This document shows, piece by piece, positions 1 through 18,851 of a stretch of 64,000 bases of DNA. Each line of letters begins with the position of its first letter. Position 1 is the stretch's first letter. This stretch comes from Lactarius indigo (Eukaryota; Basidiomycota; Agaricomycetes; Russulales; Russulaceae): the NCBI GenBank assembly GCA_025766275.1, contig JAFKAC010000005.1, forward strand, positions 682,001 to 746,000, written 5' to 3'. The translations under genes were made by a program, and so were the position numbers. The notes under the pieces were generated by a model. That model was given only the letters and a program-made list of their open reading frames with translations. It was not told where the DNA came from and ran no database searches.

Positions 1-164
1 CCATCCATCATGAAGCCCCGCATGAAAAGGGTTTTGCTAAAGTAATATGTCGGCAGTTACTAGGTACCGAAGACTATTGACACACCTATTTTCAAACTCT
101 CTCCAATCCTCAGGGAGGTTGATTCCAGGTTGTGCACACAAAGCACAGAATATAGCTGTTGATC
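1..164 (-). pseudogene. KDZ transposase, start of catalytic region (fragment beyond the copia insertion)
   Basis: Read on the minus strand, this stretch continues the frame broken at 5112. Positions 164-86 encode a segment containing FCALCAQPGINLPEDW, matching the Cys-x2-Cys plus QPGINLP block of CxC2-type KDZ transposases. A 49-nt GT-AG intron follows (85-37, containing one heptamer at 50-56), and positions 36-1 encode a segment ending in MMDG, which fits the first catalytic Asp region (usually MDGNFK). The gene runs off the left edge, so the rest of the RNase H-fold domain cannot be assessed. The copia element at 165-5111 separates this part from its N-terminus. Confidence 0.82.
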
Positions 165-368
165 TGTTATTTGTGGCTAAAGCATCGCTGTTTTCACCTA
201 TTCTGTGACTGTACATTGCCCTAAGTCGAGTTACCTTATTTGGATATGCTTAGTCAGGTTGATATATCCTGCAGAGGACGGAAAATATCCCTTTAGTCTT
301 ATATCCTCCTCTGCAGTCCCCTTCTGTCCTCTGTCACTCAAGGGCCCTCTATAGGTCGCATTCTAACA
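165..368 (+). repeat. 5' LTR of copia-1
   Basis: The LTR is 204 bp long, TGTTAT...TAACA. It contains an inverted repeat (269-278 against 307-316) built around CTGCAGAGGA. It differs from the 3' LTR by one C/T change near the start and by CCC at 289-291 where the 3' copy has GGG. Confidence 0.97.
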
Positions 369-380
369 GGTTATGGGCCC
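369..380 (+). other. Primer-binding site complementary to the tRNA-iMet anticodon arm
   Basis: GGTTATGGGCCC follows the 5' LTR directly. It is complementary to an anticodon stem-loop with CAU in the loop, as expected for initiator tRNA-Met. Copia and Ty5 are known to prime with such an internally cleaved half tRNA rather than with the tRNA 3' end. No match to a tRNA 3' CCA end is seen here. Confidence 0.8.
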
Positions 381-545
381 TGCCCTGCGACTTGACTGAT
401 CCTTGCTGTCATTCCTGCTGCTCTCTTCCCTCTCAGCTCTCCACACTCATTCCAATCACTCCAATCAACTCCATTCATTTCCCACTCTTCCATTCATCCA
501 AATCTCTCCATTCCTTTCCATTCCATCGCCCACATCGCCCTCAAC

Positions 546-1322
546 ATGTCCACATCCAGAGACACCTCCATCTCATCCATTTCTCCTCTCACAACCAAAA
601 ACTATCGCCTCTGGGCTGATGATATCAAGTCCTGGCTACAGCTCAATGGTCTTTGGCGATTGGTTTCTGGCTCAGAGAACAAACCAGCTGGAAAACCCGA
701 AGTCCTGGACTCTAAGGGCAATGTCCTCACTCCTGCTACGCCTCCAGATGAGGATAAGCTGGAGAGATGGGAGGTTAAGGCTGAAAGGGCTGCTGGAGCA
801 CTCAAGACAGCTATGTCTCATGAACTCAGGGTGCTTATTAGGGACTGTGAAGACGACCCCATTGCTATCTGGGACACCCTCAAGGCCTCCTTTGTCCAAC
901 AGCGAACTGCCCCTCGCTTCAATGCCTATCACACACTCCTATCCACCCAGAAAGACAACTCAGAGTCCCTGGAATCACTCATTAACAAGGTGGATGAGCA
1001 GATTAGGGTCATAAAGTCGCTCTCACCCTCCTCCTTCACCCTGGACAACCTCTATGACGAGCTGGCTGTCATGGCTATCATTAGGGCGCTCCCACAATCG
1101 TTTGACGAAGTTGTACGCACAATTTCGGTCCTGGACAAGTTTGACAAGCAATCTGTGATCCAATCGCTCAGAAACATGGATCAGACCCGTTCCAACCTAT
1201 CTGGGACTTCATCAGCGTTCTCAGCATCATCAACAGCGTCTAAATCACGCCCTAAGGCCCCCTCAACTCCACATTCCACTCCCTCCACTCAATCCACTCA
1301 ATCCAGCTCCTCCAGTCGCCCC
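546..1322 (+). CDS. gag: Gag polyprotein of copia-1
   Basis: The first good ATG after the primer-binding site is at 546. The product, about 259 residues to the frame change, resembles the gag-polypeptide domain of copia elements, with an N-terminal block around YRLWADDIKSWL and a central helical region rich in charged residues. It ends in a Ser/Thr/Pro-rich linker. The CCHC zinc knuckle expected at the Gag C-terminus lies in the -1 frame, starting at 1325, so Gag and Pol are out of register. The Gag frame itself stays open to 1562, but the residues after about 1322 look like a shadow. Gag would package the element RNA into cytoplasmic virus-like particles. Confidence 0.85.
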
Positions 1323-4300
1323 AATGCGACTTCTGCTCTCGCTTGGGCCACATTGAGGCCAAATGCTTCCTCAAGGACCGCCTCATGCGCCAGATCAACC
1401 CCCCTTCATCCTCCACAGCTTCACCTGCCACCATCTCGTCTCAGTCACCTCCAGAAGCTCCACAGTCCGCTTCAGCTGCATCAGCAAGTGCCCTATTTTC
1501 TGCTCTCCAGAACGACTCTCACACTTCCTGGAATGCAGACACTGGTGCCTCAGCTCATATGACATTCAATCGTCATTGGATCCGCAATTTGAAGCCGCAT
1601 AGAGTCGAGATTAGGCTGGCTGATGGGTCTGTGGTCTATTCTGAAGGGGTGGGGTCGGTCCGGTTCAATCCTGTGGTGAATGGCGAAGAAATGGCACCTC
1701 TAGAGCTCACTAATGTCCTATATGTCCCTGCACTCTGCAGTAATCTATTATCTGTGCTATATCTCACTCTCCATCGCCGTTTCATCGTCTCCATTGAGAA
1801 GGACACCCTACACTTCATCAGGGACAACAGGATTGCCTTCCAAGCGAAGACTGGACCTTCAAATGCTGCATATCTTGTGGGGGACACCATTCCAGTGGAG
1901 GAGTTCGCCTCATTATCATCTGCTACCACCCTCCCATTGGACTGGGACCTCTGGCATCGTCGCCTCTGCCACCATCACTTGGCAGGCATCAAGAAGCTGC
2001 TCTCAGGCAACCTGGTGACCGGTTTCAAGCTTGATTCACAAGCAGATCCTGATCCAGTATGTGAAGCTTGCAAAGCTGGCAAGATGCATGCAGATCCCTT
2101 TCCAACTTCGACCTCTAGAGCCTCAAAACCGCTTCAATTGGTCCATAGCGACGTCCATGGCCCTGTCAAGGTGTCTACACACCAAGGGTACCGCTATTGG
2201 GTCACATTCATCGACGACTTCTCTCGCTTCAAGGCTGTTTACCTCTTGAAGCGAAAGTCTGAGACATTTGCTGCCTTCAAGCAGTTCAAGTCTTGGGCTG
2301 AGAATGTCATTGGAGCGAAACTGGTCACTCTGAGGGATGATAAAGGTGGGGAGTACATGTCTGGGGAGTTTGAAGCGTTCTGCATTGAGCATGGCATCCA
2401 GAGGCAGCACACTGCCAGGAATCGGCCTCAGCAGAATGGAGTGGCTGAGAGGGCCAACAGGACGATAGAGGAAGGTGTCATTTCGATGCTGCATGAGTCT
2501 GGGATGCCTACAGCCTTCTGGGGCGAAGCTCTGGCCGCTTTCATTCACACTAGCAATAAACTGGTCACTTCAGCGGTCCCAGGCAGCACACCTCATGAGG
2601 CATTCATTGGGAGCAAGCCAGATCTGTCTAGGCTTCGTGTCTGGGGCTGTACTGCTTATGTGCTGATCCAGAGAGATAAGCGACCACTTGGGAGCCTTGG
2701 ATCGCACATGGAGAAGTGTGTATTCATTGGATACCCTCTAGGATACAAGGGATGGAAGTTCTACAATCCTTTGACCAAGAAGGTGGTCATCTCAGAGAGG
2801 GCTGACTTTGATGAACGCTTTTTCATGCTCCAGACTCACTCTGTACCCCATCTGCCTCCCCCTCGTCCTGATTCCCTTCTTAACACACCTCCTGCTTCCA
2901 TTTCGCTCCCAGACTTCTCAGAGGACGTTCTGGATGCTCCATTTGAGTCACAGATGCCAGTTCATGGGGGAGATGGGTCTACTGACTCTGATCTGCCCTC
3001 TGTTCCTCCCATTTCGCCTCCAAGCGTCGCTCCAGCCCCACTTCACTCACAGACACCTCAGTCCATTTATCATTCACTTCCTCCTTCATCTCCATCACCT
3101 TCAACACCTCCAGCTCGTCTCCCTCATCCTCCTCCTCCTCCCTCTCGTCCCCAGCGCTCCAGACGTCCTAGAGATGAGTGGCTGCCAGAGCAATGGGCTG
3201 TTCCAGATCGCTACAAGCAACCAAGGGAGCCCACACCAGCAATAGTCTCCTCAGACGAGGGTGATGACTCTGATGATCCCCTTGACATCATCCAGGCTGG
3301 TGCAGCATCCACAGCTGAGCCCACATCCTACAGTCAGTCCCAGCGTCGCTCTGATGCAGATCTGTGGCATAAGGCTTGTGAGGAAGAGATGGAGGCTCAC
3401 AGACTCAATGGCACTTGGGAGATTGTCAAATTGCCACCTGGGAAGTGTGCAATTGGCTCCAGATGGTTCATGAAGGTGAAGCACAATGCTGATGGCTCCC
3501 TGGACCGGTACAAGGCCAGATTGGTGGCCAAGGGCTATTCTCAGCGTCCTGGCTTTGATTTCAAGGAGACATTTGCTCCCACAGTTCGCTACTCCACCAT
3601 TCGCATTGTCCTTGCCTTATCAGCCATTGAAGACCTTGAACTTTGCTCCATTGACATCTCTCATGCATATCTCAATGGCACTCTGGAGGAAGAGATCTAC
3701 ATGCTGCAGCCTGAGGGATTTGAAGTGGGCGGTCCAGATCATGTCTGCAAGCTGAGGAAGTCGCTATATGGCTTGAAGCAAGCAGGCAGGGTGTGGAACA
3801 AGACCCTTCACTCTGTGCTCACTTCTATGGGCTTCAATCGCGTCCAATCCGACCATGGGCTGTACATCTACCTCAGGGATGATGTCAGGATCCTAATGCC
3901 TGTGTTTGTTGATGATATTACGCTTGCCTGCAAGGATGGAGCCAAGATTGATTCAATTGTCCAAGAGCTCTCTACTCACTTCAAACTTCGAGATCTTGTC
4001 CCTACCACCCAATTACTTGGCCTAGAAATCCACAGAGATCGTCCTAATCGTTGCCTTTCCATCTCCCAGAGCCAGTACATCTCCAATCTGCTTCAGGAGC
4101 ATGGCCTGAGCGATTCCAAGCCTGTCTCCACTCCTCTCAACCCTGGGACACGTCTTTCCACCTCCATGTGCCCCCAGAACGATGCAGAAGCCTCAGAAAT
4201 GCGTCAATACCCCTACATCTCTGTTGTAGGCTGCCTGATGTATCTGGCAGTCACCACAAGGCCAGACATCGCCTATGCTGCCGGAGTGCTTGCCAGATTC

Positions 4301-4876
4301 AATTCCAACCCTGGCCCAGCTCATTGGCAAGCAGCCAAGCATGTGCTTCGCTATTTGAAGGGTACAATCAACCACAAGCTTGTCTACAAGCCCTCCACTT
4401 CGCCTGAGCCATTCATCACCTACTCAGATGCTGATCATGGTGGAAACCCGGACAATGGCAAGTCAACTGGTGGATATGTGGTCAAGATTGGCTCTGGAGC
4501 GGTCTCTTGGAGCTCCAAGTTGCAGCCCCTGGTTGCCTTGTCCACAACTGAAGCAGAGCACATCTCTGCTGTTGAGGTGGGCAAGGAGATCCTCTGGATG
4601 CGTCAGTTCATGGGGGAGCTTGGCTACAAGATCTCTGGCCCCTCACTGCTGAAGATGGACAATCAATCGGCCATTGCAGTGAGCAAGAGTCCAGAGCATG
4701 ATAGCAAGATGAAGCACCTCTCTCTTCGCCTATTTTGGCTGAGGGATGCTGTTCAAGATGGTGTTATCAGTCCCAGTTTTGTTACAACACAGGAGATGGC
4801 TGCTGACATCTTGACAAAGGCTCTTGACCGATTGAAGGTTGAGAAGTGTGCTAAGATGCTTGGTTTATTCAGTTAG
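1322..4876 (+). CDS. pol: Pol polyprotein of copia-1 (zinc knuckle, protease, integrase, RT, RNase H)
   Basis: The frame has no in-frame ATG at its beginning, so it depends on Gag through a frame change. A CX2CX4HX4C zinc knuckle lies at 1325-1366. The aspartic protease motif is DTGASAHM near 1540. The integrase shows an HHCC zinc-binding region near 1950-2080 and DDE residues in HSD, RDDKGGEY and QNGVAERANR. The reverse transcriptase has an FVDD active site near 3907, a normal YVDD variant. RNase H follows, with TTEAEH near 4550, ending at 4876. Length and order match intact copia Pol. All active-site motifs expected in each domain are visible, so only the Gag-Pol register argues against full competence. 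Confidence 0.95.
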   Translation, partial: QCDFCSRLGHIEAKCFLKDRLMRQINPPSSSTASPATISSQSPPEAPQSASAASASALFSALQNDSHTSWNADTGASAHMTFNRHWIRNLKPHRVEIRLADGSVVYSEGVGSVRFNPVVNGEEMAPLELTNVLYVPALCSNLLSVLYLTLHRRFIVSIEKDTLHFIRDNRIAFQAKTGPSNAAYLVGDTIPVEEFASLSSATTLPLDWDLWHRRLCHHHLAGIKKLLSGNLVTGFKLDSQADPDPVCEACKAGKMHADPFPTSTSRASKPLQLVHSDVHGPVKVSTHQGYRYWVTFIDDFSRFKAVYLLKRKSETFAAFKQFKSWAENVIGAKLVTLRDDKGGEYMSGEFEAFCIEHGIQRQHTARNRPQQNGVAERANRTIEEGVISMLHESGMPTAFWGEALAAFIHTSNKLVTSAVPGSTPHEAFIGSKPDLSRLRVWGCTAYVLIQRDKRPLGSLGSHMEKCVFIGYPLGYKGWKFYNPLTKKVVISERADFDERFFMLQTHSVPHLPPPRPDSLLNTPPASISLPDFSEDVLDAPFESQMPVHGGDGSTDSDLPSVPPISPPSVAPAPLHSQTPQSIYHSLPPSSPSPSTPPARLPHPPPPPSRPQRSRRPRDEWLPEQWAVPDRYKQPREPTPAIVSSDEGDDSDDPLDIIQAGAASTAEPTSYSQSQRRSDADLWHKACEEEMEAHRLNGTWEIVKLPPGKCAIGSRWFMKVKHNADGSLDRYKARLVAKGYSQRPGFDFKETFAPTVRYSTIRIVLALSAIEDLELCSIDISHAYLNGTLEEEIYMLQPEGFEVGGPDHVCKLRKSLYGLKQAGRVWNKTLHSVLTSMGFNRVQSDHGLYIYLRDDVRILMPVFVDDITLACKDGAKIDSIVQELSTHFKLRDLVPTTQLLGLEIHRDRPNRCLSISQSQYISNLLQEHGLSDSKPVSTPLNPGTRLSTSMCPQNDAEASEMRQYPYISVVGCLMYLAVTTRPDIAYAAGVLARFNSNPGPAHWQAAKHVLRYLKGTINHKLVYKPSTSPEPFITYSDADHGGNPDNGKSTGGYVVKIGSGAVSWSSKLQPLVALSTTEAEHISAVEVGKEILWMRQFMGELGYKISGPSLLKMDNQSAIAVSKSPEHDSKMKHLSLRLFWLRDAVQDGVISPSFVTTQEMAADILTKALDRLKVEKCAKMLGLFS

Positions 4877-4897
4877 GAACTTAGAGCACTGCACATT

Positions 4898-4907
4898 CAT
4901 GGGGGAG
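4898..4907 (+). other. Polypurine tract of copia-1
   Basis: The run GGGGGAG directly abuts the TG start of the 3' LTR, the expected place for the plus-strand primer. Confidence 0.8.
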
Positions 4908-5111
4908 TGTTATTTGTGGCTAAAGCATTGCTGTTTTCACCTATTCTGTGACTGTACATTGCCCTAAGTCGAGTTACCTTATTTGGATATGCTTAGTCAG
5001 GTTGATATATCCTGCAGAGGACGGAAAATATGGGTTTAGTCTTATATCCTCCTCTGCAGTCCCCTTCTGTCCTCTGTCACTCAAGGGCCCTCTATAGGTC
5101 GCATTCTAACA
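4908..5111 (+). repeat. 3' LTR of copia-1
   Basis: This is the partner of 165-368, about 98% identical and the same length. GGG at 5032-5034 replaces CCC. It is followed directly by the target duplication TGATC. Confidence 0.97.
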
Positions 5112-6329
5112 TGATCCCGGCTTCTGTTCTTCATTCTCCCCATACCCGAAACCGAATCTCTTCCGGGAAATGAGTACTCTCCACTGCCGGGAGACCCTCA
5201 GCAGCTCCCGATATCGGTCCTAAAGCTGCCGATTAGTCTGCTATCGGCAGATGTGCTAAGTTCTCTTACCGGCACTGAATTTGGAAACTCATCATTTGTG
5301 AGTCTCCTTAGGCGACTGAAAAATTGGCTTGGAGTCGTCTTGCATTCAAGATTGTCCAAATGGAAGTCTTCTAGCACCCGGAAGGTAAATGCTGTCTTTG
5401 GGTTGCGAAATGTGGCTGGAAAGAGCCCTGCCATCATCAACTGCATGTCGTGCTCGGGAGCTTCAGGGCAGAAGCACCAGCTGACGCCAATCTCGTGGAT
5501 TCCAGACCTATCAATGACAGTTATTATTTGATTTCCCTCTTTATCATGACGCCCAGGTTTTGGACTGTCGAAGCCAAGGTCGGCAGCTGCATGATACTCT
5601 CTGTGGCTACCGACCTGGCAGTCTTCGTCGGCATCATAGCACCTCTGTGACTGTATTTTTTGGAATGAGATTTAAAAAATAAAAGGGTTGGCAACGCACA
5701 CTTTGAATTGGGCACAAATCCCCAGAGTGCCCAAGACGCAAGCATATCCCAACCTCCCGCAACCACGACGGCATGAAGTATTTCCCTGTCCACTTCTGAA
5801 CCCTGTGGAATGGAAGCCGGTTATGTGATTTTCGGCAGCACTCCTTGCAGAGCACCAGAGCAGGGAAGCAGTCGGTACATCTCCACTCAAATGGGGCAGA
5901 CATGCAGCCCTGGCACATTGTCATAGCTGGGACACCCTCAGAGTTGAGGAGGCAACGCAAGTAGGGGCCAATCCTAGGAATAAATTCTTCCATGTATATG
6001 TGCTGGGACTGGGAGAACATGTAAAATACTATTGGAGAAGGGCATGGATGCAAACCCACTCTAGTCTGTTCAGGTATGAATGGCTCCTCTATCCAGATTG
6101 TCTCATCAACATCCATGGACGCAGGGTCGGTTTCATCCAATATTGCCCCATGGTTGTCTATCTCCATTCTGCCAGCATCTTGTCTTGGTGTCGGCAGATT
6201 TGTTGAGGTGCCTACTTCTACTGGGATATTTCTGGTTCCTTGAGAGCCTTCTTGGGACACCCACTCAATCACCTTAGCCTTAGACTTTCTGTGGAGGAAT
6301 TTGGATGCCTTCACACCCTTGCGTGCCAT
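5112..6329 (-). pseudogene. KDZ transposase, N-terminal part with CxC2 cysteine cluster, interrupted by copia-1
   Basis: The ATG at 6329 opens a 200-residue exon with a basic N-terminus. It then has the CxC2 cysteine cluster: CQGC, RCTDC, LCKECC and a following His pair (SHNRLPFH), then a GHSGDLC block. After an intron at about 5720-5655 the frame resumes with WCFCPEAPEHDMQLM and the FRVLEDFH segment. A second, 50-nt intron (5269-5220) carries two heptamers. The third exon reads to 5112, where copia-1 splits it, and continues at 164. KDZ transposases are RNase H-fold enzymes with several Zn-binding clusters that mobilise these elements. No stop or frameshift is seen other than the insertion, so the gene was probably intact until recently. 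Confidence 0.9.
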
Positions 6330-7591
6330 GGGAAACTAAGAATGGATGTGTCGTGTGTTGCAGTATATGTCCCTGAAGAAGCAGCGCCTCCAATTAACCT
6401 GTCGGCAGCTTTGGCTGGCTGGGTATTGCGTCTGTGGATTTTGCGGTCCGGACTTGACCTGTGGTCACTCACGCTACTGTCAGTAGCTTAGATAAACCAG
6501 GTTTGGCAGCCAATCAAACCACTTTGTGCTGTTAAACTGGACTGGACTGGACCTGTGGTCACTTACACTACTATCGGCAACGACTTAAACCACTTCAGGC
6601 TGTTCTCTCATGTAGCACATATTTTATCTATTGTATATGACATGAGATACCCTTTGATAGCATGTTGCTTCGTTCATCCTCAACTGTGAAGCACAAATTT
6701 GGGGTCAACAGTTCTGTTTATGCAAAAGTGTGCCTTCTCAAGGTACCTGGCAGCGGTGTCTGTCATTATTTTAGGGTTTCTACCATTTGGTTGATTGGTA
6801 GCTACCGAAAGTGTACTAGACCATATTACCATCTCGGCAGCCTCGGCAATATAACACAGAGATAACACAGATGCCGTCTGTCTTGACAAAAAACAAGATA
6901 TTTCTCTTGTGATTGAGACAAGGCTCAATAGTATGGTCTCTAGGAGTGTGACATGAGTACACCCCATTAAGATGGCAAACAGTTTGACTTGGCTGAGGGA
7001 CAATTACCAGGAATTATCGCTCCAGAGACATTTACTGATCTACCGAAAAACAATATAATGTTGTATCTGCAAAATATCGTACTAACAAATGAGCTACCGA
7101 AGCCATGGATCCGCCATGGGGGGTATGCCCAAATATGCTGATGTAGTTTCCTAGCAGTGTAGAGCTCAGATCCTGCAGCGATAAGGGTATCTGTTAAGGA
7201 GGAAGATCCAGAAACTACATCTTCCCTATATCATAGCATCACCCAGGTCTGATGTTAGTAGCTAGCCAATGAATGAGATGTCATTGGTAATGCCCCAAAT
7301 AGAGTGTTGTCTGGCAGCTCAGGAGAGGGAGCTGAGAGAGATTTTTCATAGAGAGGGATTGTAATTTACTATGGATCACCATTTCTGTTCAAGACGTTTG
7401 GTGAGCTGCTGCAAAAATAACAATATTTCTTTGTATTTGTGAAACCTTGCACCGACAGTGAGCTGCCGAAATCATAGATATACCATAATAGCCATGCCCT
7501 ATTACACTGATTCCCATTGCTAGTGGTATCGAATTCTGGCCTTGCTAAGTCAAGAAAAGATATATAGGAGAAAGCTTTGACAGTCGCTATG
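6330..7591. other. Non-coding stretch between the KDZ and TET genes
   Basis: I see no convincing gene here. It holds heptamers at 6402-6408, 6834-6840 and 7463-7469 and several near-matches of the type CTACCGA (for example near 6812, 7043 and 7092). The first ~150 bp would contain the KDZ promoter. A 107-codon minus-strand frame (6680-7003) has no recognisable features and looks random. Confidence 0.6.
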
Positions 7592-8886
7592 TTACTGATA
7601 GTGGGCTATGTTCATCCAAGAATTCCCTGGAACCCCTGCCCACTCATGTACTCTATCCCTCATGAAGTATGCGTAGCATACTCTTTCTCCTTCAAAATTG
7701 TGCACTTCATGCTCCAGCGTCCCCCCTAACAGGCCAACTACTGAACCAGGACCATACTCCAGCGAGAGTCCAATTCCCGGCAGCCTCAAATTGCAATTTC
7801 GGTAGTGCCCAACAGACGCCAGCAAATCATACCATTGTTTCCTGGACTTTCCGTCCCGATGTGGCGGCGTGAGGCGATTACAAATGACAGAGACGCCGTT
7901 GAAAACGGATGTCCATTGACGGAGGACATCCTGTGGCTGGATCTCGGCACATTCTCTTAGCCGTTTGAAGGTATCCTGACCGGCATTATAAAGCTCCGGA
8001 TGAATGACAGCCAGGATTGCACTCAATATTGAATTGGATTGAGTGATGCAATCTAGCCAGTCCAAGACAGCTGGCTTTCTCAAAGCCGCACCAACCTGGG
8101 GGTGTGGTTGTACCATCTCAATTGAAATCAGCTGCTGAATGATAAAACATTACTGGTAGAGAAAATTCACCTCATGTCCTTGTTGGAACCATGCAGGTGA
8201 TATGTTGATCACCCCCTGAAGGCCCTCTAGCCCTGAAGGAAATATTTCTGGATCAACACGCCAAGATGTGCTACTTTGACGCTTGCTCAACAAAAAATGT
8301 AGCTTCTCTGTTGCTGCCATCATTTCACCCTAAAATACATTATATTTGATGCGGTGATCGGACAAGGTGAGTAAACTTACCTGCCGAGAATCATTCAAGA
8401 TTCCAGGAAGATGCCATGCCAATATCATTCCTTGGTTGTCAATGACAATGCAGGGCCTTGAAATGGTAAGGGCAGCTGCCGTACCCTCCAGCGGAGGATA
8501 TTGCCTCTTCAGGCTGGCCTCTTTCTGCTTGGACACCTGGGTTCCTGGATTGTTTGGCTTCATTGGGAGCTTATCTGCATAACGTGTAATATCCCAGTTT
8601 ATCTGCACTGCTTGGATTGTCTCAGGATATATGTCTGAGTGCCCAGTCTGTGTCACTAACCACGGTTCATGAATGCATCCACCAGAGTGAGTGCAATTCG
8701 ATCCAGCTCTGAAATTAGAGGCACCGGCAGCATCAAGGGAGCTCGTGGTGCCTTAGCAATGCTGATTGGCTGAGAGGAGCGCTGGTTTAACTTGTATTGG
8801 AACTGAGCATGGAGGTATTCGGCACAGAGATGGGACAGACTCAGGGGGGAGAGTGTGCACGTCTGAGGGAGCTGGAAAGCCTGCAT
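7592..8886 (-). CDS. TET/JBP-family 2-oxoglutarate/Fe(II) dioxygenase
   Basis: Four exons (8886-8661, 8574-8381, 8329-8171, 8131-7592) sum to 373 codons; all three introns are 51-86 or ~39 nt with GT-AG ends. A TAA lies just upstream in frame, fixing the start at 8886. The protein has the fungal TET/JBP layout. An N-terminal helical region is followed by CIVIDNQGMILAWHLPG. The dioxygenase core shows the iron ligands HRD (in PPHRDGKSRKQWYDLL) and a distal His in LEHEV, with the 2-oxoglutarate Arg in ERVCYAYFMRD. All ligands are present, so activity is plausible. The family oxidises 5-methylcytosine in DNA, in the nucleus. It neighbours the KDZ transposase on the same strand, as in other basidiomycete KDZ elements. 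One heptamer spans the end of exon 2. Confidence 0.93.
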
Positions 8887-9070
8887 TTCCTCAGCGTCAA
8901 GGGACTTGAATGAAGATGATTAGCTGCCGATACATGCGGATTCCGTGGGAGTTGAGCTCCCGATAAACAATCCCACGCTGCCGAGCACAAGTTGGTACGT
9001 GATATAATGCCTTAAAGCTGCCGAACCTTTAGACCTTAAGTCTATCCCTCTTGAAAAACCTACCTTCCCG
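8887..9070. promoter_or_regulatory. Divergent promoter between the TET and HMG genes with three heptamers
   Basis: The 184-bp spacer separates two divergent ATGs and holds CTGCCGA at 8925-8931, 8978-8984 and 9018-9024, all in the same orientation and roughly 40-53 bp apart. Shared regulation of the two genes is inferred from position only. Confidence 0.5.
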
Positions 9071-11456
9071 ATGCCGAACACCAGCAAACAAATGAAAAAG
9101 CCTACCAAGCCTACCAAAGAGGTTGAGCGCAAAGGGCCAGGCATTGAGTCTTCAGACTCTGAAGACCCTGATGACAGCGACTACAATTTTTGCCTGCAGT
9201 CTAACTGCTCAGATTTATCTTTCGATAGGGTGTCAATCATCTCTGGTGATTTACATGTCATCGCTCGAAGGGGCATTCCTACCGATGATGAGGAGGGAGG
9301 TAGCACAGAAAATGAGAGGTGTGTATTCTGGTCTAATGTATGACTGCTAAAATGTGACCTTGGACAGGGATTCGATCGCACCTGGTGATCTAGACATGGT
9401 CACTCAAGAGGGTGTAGCTCCCGGAAACGAAGAAAGTGATAGTATGGGTCAAGCGAGGTGGGTACACTTGTTGTTTACACAGACGCCCTCCATTGACATT
9501 GCTTCACACTCAAGCCAGAGTATTGAACTAACAGATGAACAAACCGACATATTGCAGAGGCACGTTGCTGCATTCCGAGCTGCCGACCCAGATTCTCGGT
9601 CCAAAATCATCCAAGTTTCCGTTGACAGCATCAAGAAAAGTTGGCGACAAGGCGTGGGCTTTAATAGAGATGGCGTAGAAATGGTACGTTTGCTTTAGCC
9701 TCAACAATGTTGCACCGCTCTCATATTTCGTAGTTTGTACGCCGATTCCTTTATAACAGGTGCCGACGGGAGCGAAGACGATGCCAGTTTCGTCACAGAA
9801 AATGGACATATCACGACATTTTGGTTGATGTTCACCGAAAGGAACTTGACAAGATGGCTCTCGAAATGTCTGGGTCGAAGCGGGGATCGGCAGCCTACCT
9901 TGGTTGCTACAAAAAGTCCATCAAGGTGATCAGCCAGAGATTAGATGAACATACACGGGTGAAGTACAGAGCGGAGGCGAAGAAATGGACAGAGCAACAG
10001 GCTCCCCCTCGGCAGCAGCAGCGGTACGTGCATGCCAAGCACTCTATCGTGTGGGAAGTAACTAAGTCCTATCAAGGATGTTTGGGAAACATGGTATCAA
10101 CACCATGCGAGATTTTTCTGAGTCCATGTACCGCCAATATGGTGTACGGGTTGCCATATTAGCAGGCTACTGCGACAGTGATGGCGAACCGGCGATCATG
10201 TTGTGAGTATCAAATTCTATCTACTTACAATCTAGCGACCTATTACCTAGCCATGACATCAATAACGAATTGGGTGGAACGTCCTTCAAATCGCGACACA
10301 AAGACTGGCAGAGGGACCCAATGGTCGAGGACTTCTCAAGATGGACTGCCGAGTCCTTTGGTGGGAGTCTATTTTGCTTCAAGGGAAGTGTGCTAATGCG
10401 GCACCTTTATAGGATTCCATGCTAGCGATGACAGCGAAGAGGAGGGAAAAGGGAAGGATGCAACGCCAATTATCAAGCTGGTGATAGACAAGAATGGGTA
10501 TCCCATGCTGCCGAGATGGGAAGCCATCGAACGCGAGGGTCTCATGTACAGGAAGTACCTCATCGGCAGGTTCATGGGCGAGACGTACAGTAAGTGAGCT
10601 ACAGCTTGTAGTAGACCTATCACTTATGAACTTATCAGAGATTGCCGTGGGCGGGGGAAAGGGCAGAATCCCATGGGCCAGACTGAAAGAGACCCCAGGT
10701 GACTTCATCCTTTCCAAGTACCTGCCGGCCGGTGTTACGCTCACTCAGTACCATCACATTCGCCAAGAGGATGTCAACGCATTGCTCAAACACTGGACGC
10801 AAAGGCAAGCTGCCGGCGAGATCCCATTCCGTTTCAAGATGAGAGATGTCTGGGGGCGTCAGGCACAAGGAAATGATGAAGAAACCCCTGGAGATGGAAA
10901 TGCTCTAACCAAAGAGGGGGCTGACGGTAATGGCCAAGAAGACAGCGCTGGGGGTCCAAGCGATGTAAGTAAGCTCCTTGTGTTGATGGGAGATGCTTAC
11001 CATCTTTTTCCGCACCTTAAGCCTCACCCTCACCACAGCACCAGCAGCCAAAGGCATGGAAATGGTGCCGAGGTGTGTGAGGAGCTGGGACAGGGAGATC
11101 GAGATCCATCTCCGCACCCACCCAACGCTGCACCCCCTCACACTCGCCCTCGCCCTCGCATTATCACACAACGCCACTCTACAACAGGAAGCTCAAGGGC
11201 GGATCAAGCTGCTGAGGCATCTACCACTCATAGACCAGTTCCCGACACAGCTGCCGATACTCGTCCCCCCAAGCGTCAGAAAGTCAGCAACCCCACCATA
11301 AATGCACAGCCTGAGACTCGGCGCTCAGGGCGTTCAACACGGCCTACAGAGCGGGTCAAGCAAACGCAGTAAGTAATGACTTCTTTGTTGTATCTAGAAC
11401 CTGAAGTTCCCAATAGGGGTAGCAATATGTATTCTAGGAAGAGAGCGCGTCGCTAG
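9071..11456 (+). CDS. KDZ-associated HMG-type DNA-binding protein
   Basis: A nine-exon model sums to 653 codons: 9071-9318, 9368-9683, 9734-10023, 10077-10202, 10251-10360, 10413-10589, 10639-10964, 11022-11368, 11438-11456. The N-terminus is acidic and Ser-rich. Exon 3 has an Arg-rich patch, then a helical segment (WTYHDILVDVHRKELDKMAL through KYRAEAKKWTEQ) of the divergent HMG type that accompanies KDZ and TET genes. This is followed by MFGKHGINTMRDFSESMYRQYGVRVAILAG, written here only as a region near 10080-10170, and a conserved block from IPWARL to TLTQYHHI. The C-terminus has a basic, NLS-like stretch around PPKRQK. It is probably a nuclear DNA-binding partner of the element; the precise role is unknown. 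If the last intron is not spliced the stop is TAA at 11370. Confidence 0.8.
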
Positions 11457-11612
11457 CAGTCTTTGTATCACCTTTCTCCATCCACTCTCTAATTCATGGT
11501 ATCACAAGTCCTCATTGTAGTATCTATTGTCCATTCGTCGTAGTCGATATACAGATGTGTTGCAAAAACTTATACTTGATGAAACAGAAAACATGAAGGC
11601 CTAATCAGCCTT

Positions 11613-13233
11613 TTATGCCCCACCGCCTTTCATCAACACCTCCAATTTCTCCTCGACATCCGCCAACCTCATCTCCAGGTGTTGGATCCTTTCGGCAGAG
11701 TTGTGCTCAGGAACTTCCTGAGGTGCTTGAGCTGCCGAAACCCCAGAACGCTGCCGAGAGGATGACAGAACCAAGTGTGAGGGCATTGGCACCTCCACAA
11801 CTGGCACAAGGCGTCGTGCAGGTTGCAAGCGCCGACGGAGGGAGGGAGTGATCGCGGGGGTGGCATCGGCAGCACCGGCAGCTGCAGCAGGAGCGGAGGG
11901 ACCGGCAGCTGCAGCGGCGGTAGCGGTGGCAGTGGTGTCGGTGGCAGAGGGGTTGGGAGAGGTGGGAGAGTCAGGCGCCGTGGGGGCCAGCGAAGCTGGA
12001 GACGCTGCGTTGGATGACGTGCTGTACAGCGTCAGCCCCTCAACCAACCTTGAGGCCGATGCTGCCGAGTCTGACGCCTCCGACGTCTTCCTGTATGCAG
12101 CTGCGGGCTGCTTTCCTTCCCGCACCTTGTACTGAGCAATGCGGTACCTGCGCACCACTTCCGGCTTCAGGTGGCGCCGATCGGTCTTGCCTGTCTTCGA
12201 GTTTGGCGGCATCAAGCTGCACCCCACCTTGCTGCTTTGGCAGCGCAAGCAGGGAGCTGTCGGCTGTGGCTCGCAGTGCACATTGGCCTTGATGCATCTT
12301 TCACACTATCACCAAGTTCTTTCAGCCGAATCTTAATGAAAATATATAACTACGCACCGAAAATTCATACTCGTCGTCGTCGTCGTCGTCGTCCTCACTC
12401 TCCAACTCGTCTCCTATCACTTTGGGAGGGAGTCGGACTGGCACATTCCACTTCTTGGAATGGCACGGCGGTGGTGAAGTAAGCTTGCGCTTCCTCAAGG
12501 TAGCTGCCGAACCAGCTGCCTTCTTCTTTCCCTTCTTGTGGATTGAGGGAGGCTCAGGGGACTTATGGAGTTAATCAGAAACAAAACGTAAATGGGGAAG
12601 TATTATTGCTCACCTCCTCCAGCTGGTCTACCTCCATCTCGTCTTCTGAGTCTTCAGGAGGTGGGCCCATGATGAGCGTCACCTTCGGCAGGTGCCGATG
12701 AGGAGGTGAAGGTGGTGGTGGTGGTGGCGGTGTAGGACTTGGTGCTGCATTTCCAGCGGGCACCCCCCCATCCCCATGCTCGGCAGCTGTGGAGGTTTAG
12801 ACTGTGTTTGAGGGAAAGGTGAACAGTGACTTACCAAGGTGCTCCCACCAGCGGCCCTCATTTGGAGGCAATAGGTGCGAGATGTCGGCGGGGAATTTGG
12901 CACTGGGCAGGTAATATTTGTGCTTGTTAATTGAAGGGTGCCCCCTGCCGATGTCTGACAAATCCCCCTTGGCATCGAGGACGATATACAAGGCGGCTAG
13001 CGTTGGGTGTAGCGCCGGCAGGTCCCCCGAATTTCGCCGGAGCCTCCTGAACTCTCGCGTCGTGAGGACCTAGTTCAAATGGGGATTGGATGGAAACTGC
13101 AATTGAATTAAGTACGTACCTTCTCTTCCTCAAAGCGGTGTTCCCATTCAGCCCTGTCAGCAACATCGCGAACGCTGACATAGCTTGCAACAGCGGCCTC
13201 AACCCTAGCGGCGATATGGAGGAGGGAATTCAT
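11613..13233 (-). CDS. Zn2Cys6-like cluster protein with C-terminal coiled coil
   Basis: Five exons (13233-13120, 13069-12835, 12786-12614, 12561-12358, 12305-11613) sum to exactly 473 codons. The N-terminal part is helical. It is followed by a block ending LPPNEGRWWEHL that I associate with Agaricomycete transposon-linked proteins of unknown function. Then come Pro-rich and acidic tracts (a poly-Asp run from a CGT repeat at 12370-12394). The last exon begins with six cysteines spaced CX2CX6CX7CX2CX6C (12305-12219), the spacing of fungal Zn2Cys6 binuclear clusters, with a basic tail. An Ala/Ser/Pro-rich linker leads to a short heptad coiled coil at the C-terminus. Zn2Cys6 proteins usually carry the cluster near the N-terminus, so the internal position is unusual. 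A DNA-binding role is inferred. Confidence 0.75.
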
Positions 13234-13477
13234 GGCGTTGGTGGGTAAGAAAAAAGTGTGTTGGCAGTTTACGTTGCCACATTGAAGCGAGGTCAACAAG
13301 CGGCATGCTGCCGAGCTGCCGAAACTACCGATCTGGAATCTGGAACCTGACTCAGCAAAAAACAGTAATGAATCTTGAGTGTCTCTTGCGTAATAAGCAA
13401 TCTAGATATATAGGCTCATTCCGCATCGAGTCTCCCTTATCACCGCCTCATCAAACTGTCCCACTTCTTTGCTAGCT
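13234..13477. promoter_or_regulatory. Divergent promoter with a tandem heptamer pair
   Basis: The 244-bp spacer between the Zn-cluster gene (minus) and the repeat-protein gene (plus) has CTGCCGA at 13308-13314 and 13316-13322, separated by a single base and in the same orientation. This is the tightest pair of heptamers outside 14046-14063. An operator role is inferred. Confidence 0.5.
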
Positions 13478-14424
13478 ATGTCTCGCCCTTTTCTTGCACT
13501 ATCGGTTGACACTCGGCAGCTTGTGACCGGAAGAGATGCGCCATTATCTGCCGAAGGTCAAGACGATTTTGGCATGGATGGGTCGCCCTCTCCACGAAGC
13601 CAACACAGCTTTGGCATGGATGGGTCACCCTCCCCTCAAAGTCAACGCAGCTTCGGTATGAGTGGGTTGTCATCCCCTCAATACCAATACAGTTTCAGCA
13701 TGGGTGGGTCACCCTCTCCTCAATGCCGACATAGTTTCGGCATGGATATGTCACCATCCCCCCAACGCCAACACAATCTTGGCAGGGATGGGTCACCCTT
13801 GTCACCCTCTTCGCATGGACAACGCAACTTTGGTGTGGACAAGCTGCCTTCACCAGAATCTCAAGACAACTTCGGCAAGGATATGCCAACCTCACCTGAC
13901 ATCCAAGATCAGGGGACTGACCCTGCGTCGAGGATGGAAGCCCCACTGGTTCTAGGGACTCAACAACCCAGCATTGACCCAGTGCCAACACAGGAGGAAA
14001 GATCTGGGACAGGCGTCTCTCTACCTACCGAGGCCAGAGAGACCTTCGGCAGCCATTCGGCAGCTCGCAGTAAGTCTCATTTCTACTGATTATATATGTC
14101 TCTAACTCTGCGTGCACAGCTTGGAATTGGGGTGATCGTGCCCCATCTCCCAGCAACTCTGAGATAAAGGAAGGTGAGGTCGGTCAGGAGGAAGCACCTT
14201 CAGAGCTGGTGCGCCACATTGTCAACCTAGCATAGTGAAAACTGACCATTGTTTCTTTCTAGCAAGAAGAGTACGACCTGGGAACTCGGGTGTCGATCTT
14301 ACGTGCCGAAGCTGTAAGACTTCGGCGGATCTACGTCCAAGCTTGGCGGATTTATGAGAGGGAGATTGCTTTGAGTGAGGTTGTAGACGCTATGGTAGAT
14401 GAGCTGGACAATATTGAGGCGTAG
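13478..14424 (+). CDS. Repeat protein of unknown function (14-residue repeats)
   Basis: The ATG at 13478 is preferred over one 9 bp upstream because its context is better. Three exons (13478-14069, 14120-14208, 14263-14424) sum to 281 codons. Residues ~31-143 consist of eight degenerate 14-residue repeats with consensus FGMDGSPSPQSQHS. The middle is low-complexity. The C-terminal ~55 residues form a charged amphipathic helix (around RVSILRAEAVRLRRIY). No enzyme domain is seen. The Ser/Pro-rich repeats suggest a disordered, possibly phosphorylated scaffold, which is inference. It lies inside the KDZ element between the Zn-cluster gene and the terminal array and contains four heptamers, two of them 4 bp apart at its exon 1 end. 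I do not recognise a family. Confidence 0.65.
13569..13906 (+). repeat. Coding minisatellite, eight 42-bp units
   Basis: Eight imperfect 42-bp units encode the FGMDGSPSP-type repeats. Unit 6 carries an extra Ser/Pro triplet expansion. The unit edges often coincide with near-heptamers such as TTCGGCAT and TTCGGCAA. Confidence 0.8.
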
Positions 14425-14749
14425 AACATTATATAGCGGTGTCGAATACTTAAATAGTATGCATATAGCAGCCTTGATTCAGATGCAATTTAAGTACACC
14501 CAGAAGAGATTGCTGGTTGATATGATAAAGGATAATGGGCAACTCAAATGACAAAGTCGGGATCTCCAAAAAGGACACCAGCACAATGTAAGATACTCAG
14601 TAAAGGTGCTATGAGGGTGATGTAGAGGCCATTTGGGACCGTCGGTATTATTTGCAGGAACATTGTAGGGCTTAAGTAGTCCCAGTGAGGATGGTCGGTA
14701 GCTCTCTGTGATTCAATTCTGGGCCAACTGCAAACCATCAACAGCAATT
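14425..14749. other. Non-coding lead-in to the terminal array
   Basis: No gene is seen. The AT-rich 3' flank of the repeat-protein gene passes into diverged, partly inverted copies of array sequence from about 14,530. Confidence 0.5.
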
Positions 14750-17050
14750 CACGACTATGGCCATTGGCCCACCCATTTATCTCAGCAGTTTTGCCAATCA
14801 GTGTCCATGGCCAATCTGAGCTATTCGGCAGCTCTATCAATGGGCCCACTAATGATATATACCAGCTGTTACTTGATGGGCCCACGTGGGTTTTACCTAT
14901 GTAATTGGTCTATTTACACTATTACTAGATCGTGGGTCTGTTCAATGTGTTCAGCAGCTTTCAATGAGTTCAACCCAGGCCCACTCTAAATTATTGACAA
15001 CTCTTCTAAGCTGTGCCAATTGGCCCATTCGTTTATCTCGGCAGTTTTTCCAATCAGTGTCCATGGCCCATCCTTTTATGCCAGCGGTTCTATCCATGGG
15101 CCCACTCATGATATATGCCCACTGCTACTTGATGGGCCCACGAGGGTTGATCGATGTAATAGGTCCATTTACACTATGTCTAGATCATGGGCCCACTCAA
15201 GTTGTTCGGCAGCTCTCGATGAGTTCAACCGCAGGCCTACTCTAAACTATTGACAACTCTTCCTAGCTGTGCCAATTGGCCCATCCATTTATTTCAGCAG
15301 TTTTATCCATGGGCCCAATCATGATATATGCCCACTCTTGCTTGATGGGGCCATGTGGGTTCAACAATGTAATAGGTCAATTTACACCCTGCCTGATCGT
15401 GGGCCCACTCAAGATGTTCGGCAGCTCTCTGTGGGCTCAACAATGGGCCCATTCTAATATATTGACAACTCTTCCTGGCTGTGCCAATTGGCCCATCCAT
15501 TTATCTTGGCAGTTCTATCCATGGGCCCACTCATCACATATGCCCACTCTTGCTTGATGGGCCCATGTGGTTTCACCAATGTAATAGGTCAATTTACACC
15601 CTGCCTGATCATGGGCCCACTCAAGATGTTCGGCAGCTCTCTGTGGGCTCAACAATGGGCCCATTCTAATATATTGACAACTCTTCCTAGCTGTGCCAAT
15701 TGGCCTGTCCATTTATCTTGGCAGTTTGATCCATGGGCCCACTCATGATATATGCCCCTCTTACTTGATGGGCCCATGTGGTTTTACCAATGTAATAGGT
15801 CAATTTACACCCTGCCTGATCGTGGGCCCACTCAAGATGTTTGGCAGGTCTTTGTAGGCTCAACAATGGGCCCATTCTAATATATTGACAACTCTTCCTG
15901 GCTGTGCCAATTGGCCCATCCATTTATCTCGGCAGTTCTATCCATGGGCCCACTCATGATATATGCCCCTCTTACTTGATGGGCCCATGTGGTTTCACCA
16001 ATGTAATAGGTCAACTTACACCCTGCCTGATCATGGGCCCACTCAAGATGTTCGGCAGCTCTTTGTAGGCTCAACAATGGGCCCATTCTAATATATTGAC
16101 AACTCTTCCTGGCTGTGCCTAATTGGCCCATCCATTTATCTTGGCAGTTCGATCCATGGGCCCACTCATCACATATGCCCCTCTTACTTGATGGGCCCAT
16201 GTGGTTTTACCAATGTAATAGGTCAATTTACACCCTGCCTGATCATGGGCCCACTCAAGATGTTCGGCAGCTCTCTGTGGGCTCAACAATGGGCCCATTC
16301 TAATATATTGACAACTCTTCCTGGCTGTGCCAATTGGCCCATCCATTTATCTTGGCAGTTTGATCCATGGGCCCACTCATGATATATGCCCCTCTTACTT
16401 GATGGGCCCATGTGGTTTTACCAATGTAATAGGTCAATTTACACCCTGCCTGATCGTGGGCCCACTCAAGATGTTCGGCAGCTCTCTGTGGGCTCAACAA
16501 TGGGCCCATTCTAATATATTGACAACTCTTCCTGGCTGTGCCTAATTGGCCCATCCATTTATCTTGGCAGTTCTATCCATGGGCCCACTCATCACATATG
16601 CCCCTCTTACTTGATGGGCCCATGTGGTTTTACCAATGTAATAGGTCAATTTACACCCTGCCTGATTGTGGGCCCACTCAAGATGTTTGGCAGGTCTTTG
16701 TAGGCTCAACAATGGGCCCATTCTAATATATTGACAACTCTTCCTAGCTGTGCCAATTGGCCCATCCATTTATCTCGGCAGTTCGATCCATGGGCCCATG
16801 TGGTTTCACCAATGTAATAGGTCAATTTATACTATGCCTTGATTGTGGGCCCACTCAATGTGTTTGGCAGCTCTCAATGAGTTTAACCATGGGCCCACTG
16901 TATACTATTGACAAAACTTCCCAGCTACTACAATTGGCCCATTCATTTATCTTGGCAGTTCTATCCATGGGCCCACTCATGATATATGCTCACTCTTGCT
17001 TGATGGGCCCACATGGATTTCAACAACCTGTAAGGTCTATATGCACATGG
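14750..17050. repeat. ~211-bp tandem array (about ten units) rich in GGGCCC palindromes
   Basis: A landmark of each unit, TTCTAATATATTGACAACTC, recurs near 15,450, 15,661, 15,870, 16,087, 16,297, 16,509 and 16,720, giving a period of about 211 bp. Outer units toward both ends are more diverged. Each unit carries about four GGGCCC palindromes and one or two copies of TCGGCAG or its variant TTGGCAG. Short frames on both strands are shadows of the repeat. It occupies the subterminal position of the KDZ element, where transposase-binding repeats are often found in other DNA transposons. Confidence 0.9.
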
Positions 17051-17092
17051 GCTTTTACATACACATTGTCACTAACTTGCGCCATTATGTGT

Positions 17093-17137
17093 CATAACCC
17101 ATAGCATGGACCATCCACAGAGGGGGTATGGGTTATG
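17093..17137. repeat. Perfect 11-bp inverted repeat with 23-bp loop
   Basis: CATAACCCATA at 17093-17103 is the exact complement of TATGGGTTATG at 17127-17137. It lies between the end of the array and the first LTR fragment, close to the inferred right border of the KDZ element. Confidence 0.6.
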
Positions 17138-17147
17138 AGGGGTCCAA

Positions 17148-18022
17148 CTGTATAGGACAAAGGAGTGTGCTAATGGAGAACAAGGCACAGAGAACAAAGA
17201 AAGTCCAGACTGTAATGATATCATAGTGACACCAAAATAATAAAGATAAGAAAAAAGAGAACAAGGAAACATAGTACAATAAAGAGTCTGGAGTAGTCCT
17301 GTTGATAAGTGACCCTTGCACACTTAGTGGCTCATACAGGCTGGACTTGCAGCATGGACTGCTTTAGATTAGATATACAGGACATGTAGATTAGATATTG
17401 ATCTGTACAATCTTGAATGCCTTGTATTTACTTATCTATGACATCACTGTACTATGACATTATGCAGAGTCCTCTGGACCTGTCATTGTACTACACCTTT
17501 GTTCTCTGTTTAGTTCTATCTTTATTGTGATATCATTATGATATCATCTTAGTCTGGACGTTCTTTGTTTTCATGCTCCTTGTTCTCCATCTGTACATCC
17601 CTTTTGTCCACATGTAGAACAACATCTCTTGTACTGTGTGACTTTATGTTACATCCCTTGTAGTAATGTCACTCCTGTAAACAGTATAAGTAGTGTACCA
17701 TGTACACTCCTGGTCCACATCAGTTCTCACTGCTTGTGTGCCAGACTCCCTGCTTTACTTGCAAGATCCCCTGTTACACCTCTGCTTCCAGCCACCTTCC
17801 ATATCTCACCACAGTCTACTTGTTCACTGTAAGTATGGTCTTTTTCTGTCCTGTTCATCAAGTCCATGTGATGTCATTGTACATGATGTCATAGATAAGT
17901 AAGAAGTTCAAGATTGTACCAGATCAAATCTTAATCTACAGAAATCCAATATATCTAATCTAAAGCAGTCCTTATCTGCAAGTTTTTTGAGCTGCTAAGT
18001 GTGCAATGGTCACTTATCAACA
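17148..18022 (-). repeat. Copia-2-family solo LTR (LTR-A), truncated and split by LTR-B
   Basis: 17148-17299 and 17866-18022 align, in the same orientation, with two adjacent parts of the copia-2 LTR at 18210-18832 and end with the same CACTTATCAACA. The left part of the LTR is missing. LTR-B (17300-17860) interrupts it. The sequence to its right is not the internal end of copia-2, so this appears to be a solo or broken LTR. Confidence 0.75.
17300..17860 (+). repeat. Copia-2-family solo LTR (LTR-B), inserted in LTR-A
   Basis: The LTR is 561 bp, TGTTGATAAG...GTTCATCA, flanked by the perfect 5-bp duplication AGTCC (17295-17299 and 17861-17865). No internal element sequence remains, so it is a solo LTR left by LTR-LTR recombination. 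It is in the opposite orientation to LTR-A and to copia-2. Confidence 0.88.
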
Positions 18023-18209
18023 ATGAAGTGGATGGAGAATTAGCAGAGTGGATGGTGGTGCTTATATGCACATCACAAGTGGGGTTTGATTTCTTGAACT
18101 CCACTATTGATTCATTAGTGAAGATGTCATCCTTGTCAACCCACTGATTGTTTAAGTCTGGGTAGCCCTTTTTTTTTTTTTTGAATTAATTTATATTCTG
18201 GGGCAGTAG
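18023..18209. other. Short spacer with an open minus-strand frame
   Basis: From 18166 to 18023 the minus strand stays open and reads like protein (around WVDKDDIFTNESIVEF), followed upstream by a T12 run near 18170. It may be a fragment of an interrupted exon. I do not recognise it. Confidence 0.3.
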
Positions 18210-18832: not shown

Positions 18833-18851
18833 TCTCCCCGTGATCTACAAT

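What the first reader, a model, noticed from the sequence alone, without database searches (positions are those of the whole stretch)
1..17050. Heptamer TCGGCAG is scattered across the whole KDZ element and marks its extent
By eye I count about 45 copies of TCGGCAG or CTGCCGA in the ~12 kb of KDZ sequence; one or two would be expected by chance. Copies include 50-56, 5226-5232, 5244-5250, 5580-5586, 5832-5838, 6191-6197, 6402-6408, 6834-6840, 7463-7469, 8381-8387, 9580-9586, 9887-9893, 10508-10514, 11251-11257, 11692-11698, 11732-11738, 12062-12068, 12685-12691 and 13513-13519. They lie in exons, introns, spacers and the terminal array, on both strands. The inserted copia element has none and the other 47 kb about three. 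Each copy holds one CpG, the substrate context of the TET enzyme the element encodes. Such dispersal through coding DNA suggests selection for an element-wide recognition signal rather than ordinary subterminal repeats.
Basis: partly seen in the sequence, partly recalled or inferred. Interest (0 to 1): 0.88.

Follow-up and report, generated by a model that had tools for sequence, protein, structure and literature searches.

The report
Transposon-wide seven-letter address tag
A 21,000-base jumping gene of a milk-cap mushroom repeats one short DNA word through all of its genes, introns and spacers, and comparison with relatives shows that selection keeps the word in the DNA itself, probably as an address label that lets the element's own proteins, perhaps including its DNA-demethylating enzyme, recognise its own DNA.

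Summary
In detail: TCGGCAG/CTGCCGA occurs 45 times in 1-17,050, never in the copia insert, 3 times in the other 47 kb. The window holds most of a KDZ transposon of Lactarius indigo; an intact copy (20,969 bp) has 93 heptamers. They are as dense in exons as elsewhere: 36 in 10.2 kb of coding DNA against 2.7 under synonymous-codon shuffling (maximum 9 of 1,000), 18 sense and 18 antisense. A related family (74% identical where aligned) keeps 19 of 43 sites against 18% for matched 7-mers and has others elsewhere: selection on DNA, with turnover. TGGGCCCA is confined to the terminal arrays (64 of 65), so ordinary subterminal repeats are separate. New here: the word marks the TET-bearing KDZ clade, which nearly always carries a Zn2Cys6-like protein; three of four TET-less KDZ families sampled carry another body-wide word, TCCGGA. 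Best reading: clade-specific self-recognition tags read by an element-encoded DNA-binding protein, comparable to VANC/VANDAL but extending through coding DNA. Guidance of TET is plausible and unproven; heptamer CpGs are not protected from mutation.

The parts
1..17091 (.). KDZ (Kyakuja-type) TET-bearing transposon, family A; continues 6,861 bp to the left of the window (contig C237:675,140-699,091)
   Evidence: Shared ends GAGCCCATGACG...GCGCCATTATGTG and 7-bp duplication TCATAAC; copies 98-99.7% identical over long stretches at C13, C24 (two) and C46
50..16781 (.). 45 TCGGCAG/CTGCCGA tags. + : 50 5244 5580 5832 6191 6402 6834 9887 10009 10563 11692 11866 12685 12780 13513 14046 14057 14825 15038 15206 15418 15630 15929 16052 16264 16475 16775. 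- : 5226 7463 8381 8924 8978 9018 9580 10346 10508 11251 11732 11751 12062 12504 12945 13308 13316 13548
   Evidence: coding and noncoding tests on the intact copy
165..5111 (+). Retrotransposon insert (named copia in the finding; domains not tested here) that interrupts the transposase gene of this copy; holds no heptamer
   Evidence: Absent from the intact copy at C24; lies within a conserved transposase exon block; zero heptamers; CpG o/e 0.36
5112..6335 (-). 5' exons of the KDZ transposase with the CxC2 cysteine cluster (5201-5671); the catalytic KDZ exon lies left of the window at C237:681,252
   Evidence: Pfam CxC2 3.8e-26 on 5201-5671; KDZ 3.3e-31 on the exon from another copy
7595..8886 (-). 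TET/JBP dioxygenase gene (catalytic exon 7595-8149)
   Evidence: Pfam Tet_JBP 7.5e-19; exon homology to family B
9065..11369 (+). Gene B: accessory protein found near most KDZ copies, HMG-box-like plus GTF2I-like fold (predicted, middling scores)
11613..13233 (-). Gene C: Zn2Cys6-like protein with C-terminal coiled coil; cysteine cluster C-x2-C-x6-C-x7-C-x2-C-x6-C at about 12219-12305
   Evidence: Pfam Zn_clus only 0.035, below cut-off
13478..14424 (+). Gene D, no Pfam match in the long exon; contains a 42-bp minisatellite
14763..17010 (.). Right terminal array, ~212-bp units with TGGGCCCA and about one TCGGCAG (or TTGGCAG) per unit
17092..17098 (.). 7-bp target-site duplication TCATAAC

Best explanation
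The heptamer is the exact core of a slightly degenerate binding word, roughly [T>C,G]CGG[C>T]AGCT, that this clade of KDZ transposons keeps at about 3.5 copies per kb through exons, introns and spacers on both strands. It works as a self-recognition tag. An element-encoded DNA-binding protein reads the word, coats the whole ~21 kb element and brings other element proteins to it. Two readers are plausible: the Zn2Cys6-like protein (gene C), found near almost every TET locus, or the HMG/GTF2I-like protein (gene B), found near most KDZ copies of both clades. In TET-bearing families the most likely cargo is TET, giving demethylation of self DNA much as VANC proteins do for VANDAL elements. Shown here: the enrichment, its independence from protein coding, its conservation with turnover, its restriction to the TET-bearing clade among the families sampled, and an analogous word in TET-less families.
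For: Coding DNA: 36 against 2.7 (sd 1.6, max 9 of 1,000 synonymous shuffles); internal noncoding 20 in 5.6 kb against 0.64; all three frames, 18 sense and 18 antisense. Top 7-mer of all in coding DNA, z 21. Families A to B, main block (74% identical): 19 of 43 ungapped sites kept exactly against 129 of 730 for 7-mers with one CpG and five G+C, p 5e-5; over both blocks 21 of 56 A sites and 21 of 61 B sites are exact. Enriched near-misses change mainly positions 1, 5 and 7, not CGG. Genome: 37 of 39 TET loci have gene C within 30 kb, 1 of 89 TET-less KDZ loci does. The diverged C112 element (TET 63%, gene B exons 43-58%, gene C 39% identical to A) still has 19 heptamers, five of them within about 2 kb of its gene C. 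CpG o/e: TET-bearing A 0.59 with heptamers masked, B 0.59, B' 0.69 against TET-less KDZ 0.32-0.44 and the insert 0.36.
Against: TET-less families L032, L033 and L034 also have a body-wide word, TCCGGA, so the tag is not TET-specific; L035, of a family with gene B relatives nearby, has no such word. 12 of 49 gene C matches have no TET within 30 kb. Heptamer CpGs are not significantly protected, and CpG o/e does not rise near heptamers. The C112 element has TET but CpG o/e 0.38. Copies of family A still mutate mostly at CpG (127 of 156 substitutions), so any escape from methylation is partial. In family B a few near-misses inside CGG are in mild excess (TTGGCAG 8 against 3.2, TCGCCAG 5 against 1.6). 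Gene C scores below the Pfam cut-off and its model is poor (pLDDT 42). No binding data and no other species' DNA was available.
Confidence: 0.6

Rival explanations
1. The word is a transposase-side signal: it is bound by the KDZ transposase or gene B across the whole long element to compact it, synapse the ends or protect it during excision, and has nothing to do with methylation or TET.
For: KDZ and gene B are common to both clades (73 of 89 TET-less and 42 of 44 TET-bearing KDZ loci have gene B within 30 kb); three TET-less families carry an analogous word TCCGGA; the words found have a CGG core.
Against: Transposase signals are normally terminal (recalled), and here a separate terminal-only motif TGGGCCCA exists (64 of 65 copies). 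TET-bearing families A and B have higher CpG o/e than TET-less ones.
Confidence: 0.25
2. A mutational or conversion process, such as seeding from the terminal arrays or biased repair, scatters the word without selection.
For: The two ends hold 37 of 93 copies, and the word extends to TCGGCAGCT at many sites.
Against: Flanking similarity stops at about nine bases; many sites present in one family face one- or two-base differences in the ungapped alignment with the other; sites are kept about 2.5 times more often than matched 7-mers although CpG is about 56 times more mutable than other positions.
Confidence: 0.07
3. The word is an RNA-level or protein-level constraint (splicing enhancer, peptide repeat, codon bias).
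For: Some sites lie in Ala/Ser-rich coding stretches.
Against: 18 sense and 18 antisense, all frames, same density in noncoding DNA, and 13-fold excess over synonymous shuffles.
Confidence: 0.02
4. The word is a host-imposed mark, a site that host silencing machinery uses to find the element.
For: The CpG in it is mutable like other CpGs of the element.
Against: A site that harms the element should be lost, not kept; it is absent from the retrotransposon insert and from the four TET-less KDZ families sampled.
Confidence: 0.04

Closest known systems
VANDAL transposons and VANC anti-silencing proteins of Arabidopsis (Hosaka 2017, PMC5735166, passages read; Sasaki 2023, PMC10398659, abstract read)
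   Same: A short family-specific DNA word, dense in the element and rare elsewhere; a transposon-encoded system that lowers DNA methylation; words differ between families.
   Different: VANC words lie mainly in noncoding tandem repeats, and the coding-region probes tested, which lack the word, bound much less efficiently; here the word is equally dense in exons. VANC is not a TET enzyme (recalled). Binding is shown for VANC, not here.
TET-bearing Kyakuja transposons of Agaricomycotina (Kojima 2025, PMC12730594; abstract, section 3.2, part 1 of section 4 and term-search passages read)
   Same: KDZ transposase, TET/JBP gene, 7-bp target-site duplication, no evident terminal inverted repeat.
   Different: No element-wide word is described in what was read, and the terms zinc, HMG, subterminal and Lactarius do not occur in its main text. 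[quoted passage not shown] Termini here read GAG..GTG rather than CA..TG.
Spm/En of maize with TnpA (recalled only; a search, listed two soybean CACTA papers that were not read)
   Same: Transposon protein that binds a short repeated motif and counteracts methylation of its own element.
   Different: Motif is subterminal, not in the coding body.

Membership tests
KDZ / Kyakuja TET-bearing DNA transposon | KDZ transposase domain | tested here: met
   Pfam KDZ 3.3e-31 on the exon from the intact copy; same exon at C237:681,252 left of the window
KDZ / Kyakuja TET-bearing DNA transposon | TET/JBP dioxygenase encoded in the element | tested here: met
   Pfam Tet_JBP 7.5e-19
KDZ / Kyakuja TET-bearing DNA transposon | 7-bp target-site duplication | tested here: met
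   AGGACAT, TCATAAC and CTCAAGT at three copies; the C13 copy shows none, and the ends of the C46 copy were not found in the stretch fetched
KDZ / Kyakuja TET-bearing DNA transposon | 5'-CA..TG-3' termini reported for Laccaria Kyakuja | tested here: not met
   Termini GAG..GTG. A Kyakuja subclass label is therefore left open; membership in KDZ with TET stands
VANC/VANDAL-type sequence-specific anti-silencing system | Family-specific word at high density in the element, rare elsewhere | tested here: met
   genome-wide the plain 7-mer is 1.6 times its reversed control
VANC/VANDAL-type sequence-specific anti-silencing system | Word mainly in noncoding tandem repeats | tested here: not met
   36 of 93 copies are in coding blocks and 20 in internal noncoding DNA, 37 in the end regions
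VANC/VANDAL-type sequence-specific anti-silencing system | Element protein binds the word and lowers methylation | not testable with these tools
   No binding or methylation data available
Zn2Cys6 fungal DNA-binding proteins (gene C) | Six-cysteine spacing C-x2-C-x6-C-x5-12-C-x2-C-x6-8-C (recalled) | tested here: met
   Kept in family A, in family B (P0014), C112 and a Lactarius tabidus homologue; six of the ten aligned gene models (P0007-P0009, P0011-P0013) lack it and P0016 has only part of it
Zn2Cys6 fungal DNA-binding proteins (gene C) | Pfam Zn_clus above curated cut-off | tested here: not met
   14.6 bits against 21; 10.6 for C112. So called Zn2Cys6-like only
HMG-box protein (gene B) | HMG fold | tested here: inconclusive

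The most novel reading that the evidence does not exclude
KDZ transposons carry a switchable self-address: a short CGG-core word kept by selection along the whole element, through protein-coding exons, with different words in different clades (TCGGCAG in the TET-bearing clade, TCCGGA in TET-less families). An element-encoded reader paints the full element, and in the TET-bearing clade guides a DNA-demethylating enzyme to self DNA only. That would be a natural, transposon-encoded, sequence-addressed TET system.
Probability: 0.35. Interest if true: 0.92.

Novelty: new variant of a known kind. Interest (0 to 1): 0.8.

Why it matters
How a transposon-borne TET enzyme could tell its own DNA from the host's is open; the one paper read on it speculates that it does not (PMC12730594). 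A dense, selected, clade-specific word gives a directly testable answer. The same word is written into the exons of several genes, so coding sequence doubles as recognition DNA over 20 kb. The contrast between clades with different words in one genome gives natural controls.

Tried and rejected
RNA or peptide function: rejected by equal orientation, all frames and synonymous shuffles. Regular spacing, for example by nucleosomes: spacing is indistinguishable from random (CV 0.89, P 0.27). Protection of the heptamer CpG: not seen. Local rise of CpG near heptamers: not seen. TET-only explanation of tagging: set aside after TCCGGA was found in TET-less families. A first impression that TET-less families have only clustered motifs beside the transposase gene (CTCGGAC, AACGGAA, TCCGGAAA) was corrected by the codon-shuffle test. 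The window-gene control did not run (every frame was rejected for its stop codon) and was repeated. Pfam gave no name to gene B or the long exon of gene D. The PDB sequence search with the gene C cluster gave only a chance hit. The gene C model is too poor to search. Genome-wide, the plain 7-mer is only mildly enriched (14,431 against 8,828 for the reversed word) and TCCGGA hardly at all (17,693 against 16,434), as expected if these elements are a small part of 90 Mb. PDB fold matches of gene B are middling (best Foldseek E 0.4), and other folds are not excluded. A search for Lactarius indigo genome papers found none.
Full report
What was checked. The heptamer TCGGCAG (either strand) occurs 45 times in 1-17,050, 0 times in the retrotransposon insert and 3 times in the remaining 47 kb; all 19 coordinates given are right. 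The raw top 7-mer of the element is GGGCCCA, but it sits in the terminal arrays: in the intact copy TGGGCCCA occurs 20 times in the left 2.4 kb, 44 times in the right 2.7 kb and once between. In 5112-14,762 TCGGCAG is the commonest 7-mer (34, against 3 in the 47 kb outside).

More than chance, and not from the proteins. The intact copy has 93 heptamers: 22 in the left end, 15 in the right end, 36 in coding blocks (10.2 kb) and 20 in internal noncoding DNA (5.6 kb), that is 3.5 and 3.6 per kb inside. Shuffling synonymous codons gives 2.7 (sd 1.6, maximum 9 of 1,000) for coding DNA; an order-2 Markov model gives 0.64 for noncoding DNA. Sites use all reading frames, 18 sense and 18 antisense (three coding blocks had to be re-phased there). 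A second run with a slightly different set of blocks gives 35 against 2.53 (maximum 8 of 300), z 21, first of all 7-mers. Long open frames elsewhere in the window (11.4 kb) contain none.

Selection with turnover. Family B (C1:442-469 kb) is colinear and 74% identical in the main aligned block. There, of 43 ungapped sites in A, 19 are exact in B, against 129 of 730 for 7-mers of matched CpG and G+C content (p 5e-5); among the 17 7-mers with nine or more places it ranks third, behind two words, one of which overlaps it in most copies (CGGCAGC 19 of 37, GGCAGCA 6 of 12). Over both blocks 21 of 56 A sites are exact, 4 fall in gaps and the rest have changed; of 61 B sites, 21 are exact in A, 19 face gaps and 21 face a different sequence. 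The second block (56% identical) is poorly aligned. Within family A, 127 of 156 substitutions are at CpG, about 56 times the rate elsewhere; heptamer CpGs mutate about as fast (9 of 570) as other CpGs (118 of 5,202), one-sided p 0.18; other heptamer positions show 0 of 1,425 against 29 of 72,010, p 0.57. So sites that contain a CpG are kept over the A-B divergence against a strong mutational drain, without sign of local protection between young copies.

Shape of the word. Near-misses enriched in internal DNA of A and B are mainly TCGGTAG, CCGGCAG, GCGGCAG, TCGGCAC and TCGGGAG, which leave CGG intact; in A no near-miss that changes CGG is clearly enriched (TGGGCAG 6 against 3.4), in B two are in mild excess (TTGGCAG 8 against 3.2, TCGCCAG 5 against 1.6). 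CT follows most exact copies. This is what a binding site looks like. In the terminal arrays the commonest near-miss is TTGGCAG (24), a CpG-decay form.

Who carries it. TET loci number at least 39 and KDZ matches at least 175. Gene C lies within 30 kb of 37 of 39 TET loci (the exceptions are at a contig end and a partial match) but of only 1 of 89 TET-less KDZ loci; 12 of 49 gene C matches have no TET within 30 kb. Gene B relatives lie near 73 of 89 TET-less and 42 of 44 TET-bearing KDZ loci (133 of 175 KDZ matches used). All TET-bearing copies read carry the word (five of A; C1 and C22 of B; a close relative B' at C50, 37 in 10 kb; the diverged C112 element, 14 in one block and 5 in a second one beyond a copia-like stretch, taken as one element by inference). 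A fragment at C159 with a degenerate gene C and no TET match has 6 in 6 kb. In a tree of transposase exons from eight copies the TET-bearing and TET-less families separate with full support.

The turn in the story. In TET-less families L032, L033 and L034 the palindrome TCCGGA is in excess in transposase coding DNA: 7, 8 and 12 against synonymous-shuffle means of 1.33, 1.55 and 2.05 (maxima 5, 6, 7 of 400). It is the first 6-mer in L033 and L034, and second to poly-A in L032; L035 has none in its coding DNA. Genome density is 0.2 per kb. It is kept 7 of 10 times from L033 to L034 and 7 of 15 in the other direction (all 6-mers 0.34), 4 of 7 from L032 to L034 and 4 of 15 in the other direction (all 6-mers 0.14), with family-specific sites besides. 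These numbers are small and the three families are related, so this second word is less secure than the first. It implies that tagging is a KDZ habit older than, or independent of, TET, with the word changed between clades.

Methylation footprint. CpG o/e is 0.59-0.69 in families A, B and B' (0.59 in A with heptamers masked), 0.32-0.44 in TET-less KDZ, 0.36 in the insert and 0.78-0.91 in seven of the eight bins right of the element. The first of these bins, 17,092-23,091 (0.43), holds further transposon-like sequence. The diverged C112 element has 0.38. This fits partial escape of TET-bearing families from CpG decay but may also reflect age, and it does not depend on distance to the nearest heptamer.

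Mechanism. Most likely the word is read by an element-encoded DNA-binding protein to mark self DNA along the whole element. Gene C is favoured by its company with TET, and because classical Zn2Cys6 proteins bind CGG triplets (recalled, not tested). Gene B is favoured because it occurs in both clades. Directing TET to self is the natural use in the TET-bearing clade, comparable to VANC/VANDAL (PMC5735166), but that link is inference.

Literature. Searches for Kyakuja/Dileera/Zisupton (20 of 68 papers listed), VANC/VANDAL, TET with fungi and transposons and dispersed short motifs listed no title or abstract start describing such a word in KDZ elements. In the Kojima paper the term-search passages mention no such motif. 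In PMC8889193 the passages found with the terms tried give no sequence motif. Two PNAS papers looked for by DOI were not held, so absence from print is not established.

Noticed in passing
window 14763-17010 and both ends of the intact copy (C24:1,396,711-1,417,679): TGGGCCCA is confined to the two terminal arrays (64 of 65 copies), a candidate transposase end signal separate from the element-wide word.
   Followed up: yes
five family A copies, internal 15.85 kb: 127 of 156 substitutions between copies are at CpG (2.2% against 0.04% elsewhere): strong CpG hypermutation in young TET-bearing copies.
   Followed up: partly
L032, L033, L034: TET-less KDZ families carry a body-wide TCCGGA word in coding DNA, besides clustered family motifs (CTCGGAC, AACGGAA, TCCGGAAA) beside the transposase gene.
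   Followed up: partly
window 165-5111: The retrotransposon insert interrupts the transposase gene of this copy; it is CpG-poor (o/e 0.36) and has no heptamer.
   Followed up: partly
window 17092-23091: CpG-poor stretch (o/e 0.43) right next to the KDZ end with open frames on the minus strand that look copia-like by eye; not tested.
   Followed up: no
window 13567-13799: 42-bp minisatellite in gene D encodes repeats like FGMDGSPSPQSQ.
   Followed up: no
L033 2-2509 and L034 353-2431: Other mobile-element open frames (a gypsy-like polyprotein in L033; a long transposase-like frame in L034; labels by eye and recalled) lie beside the KDZ copies.
   Followed up: no
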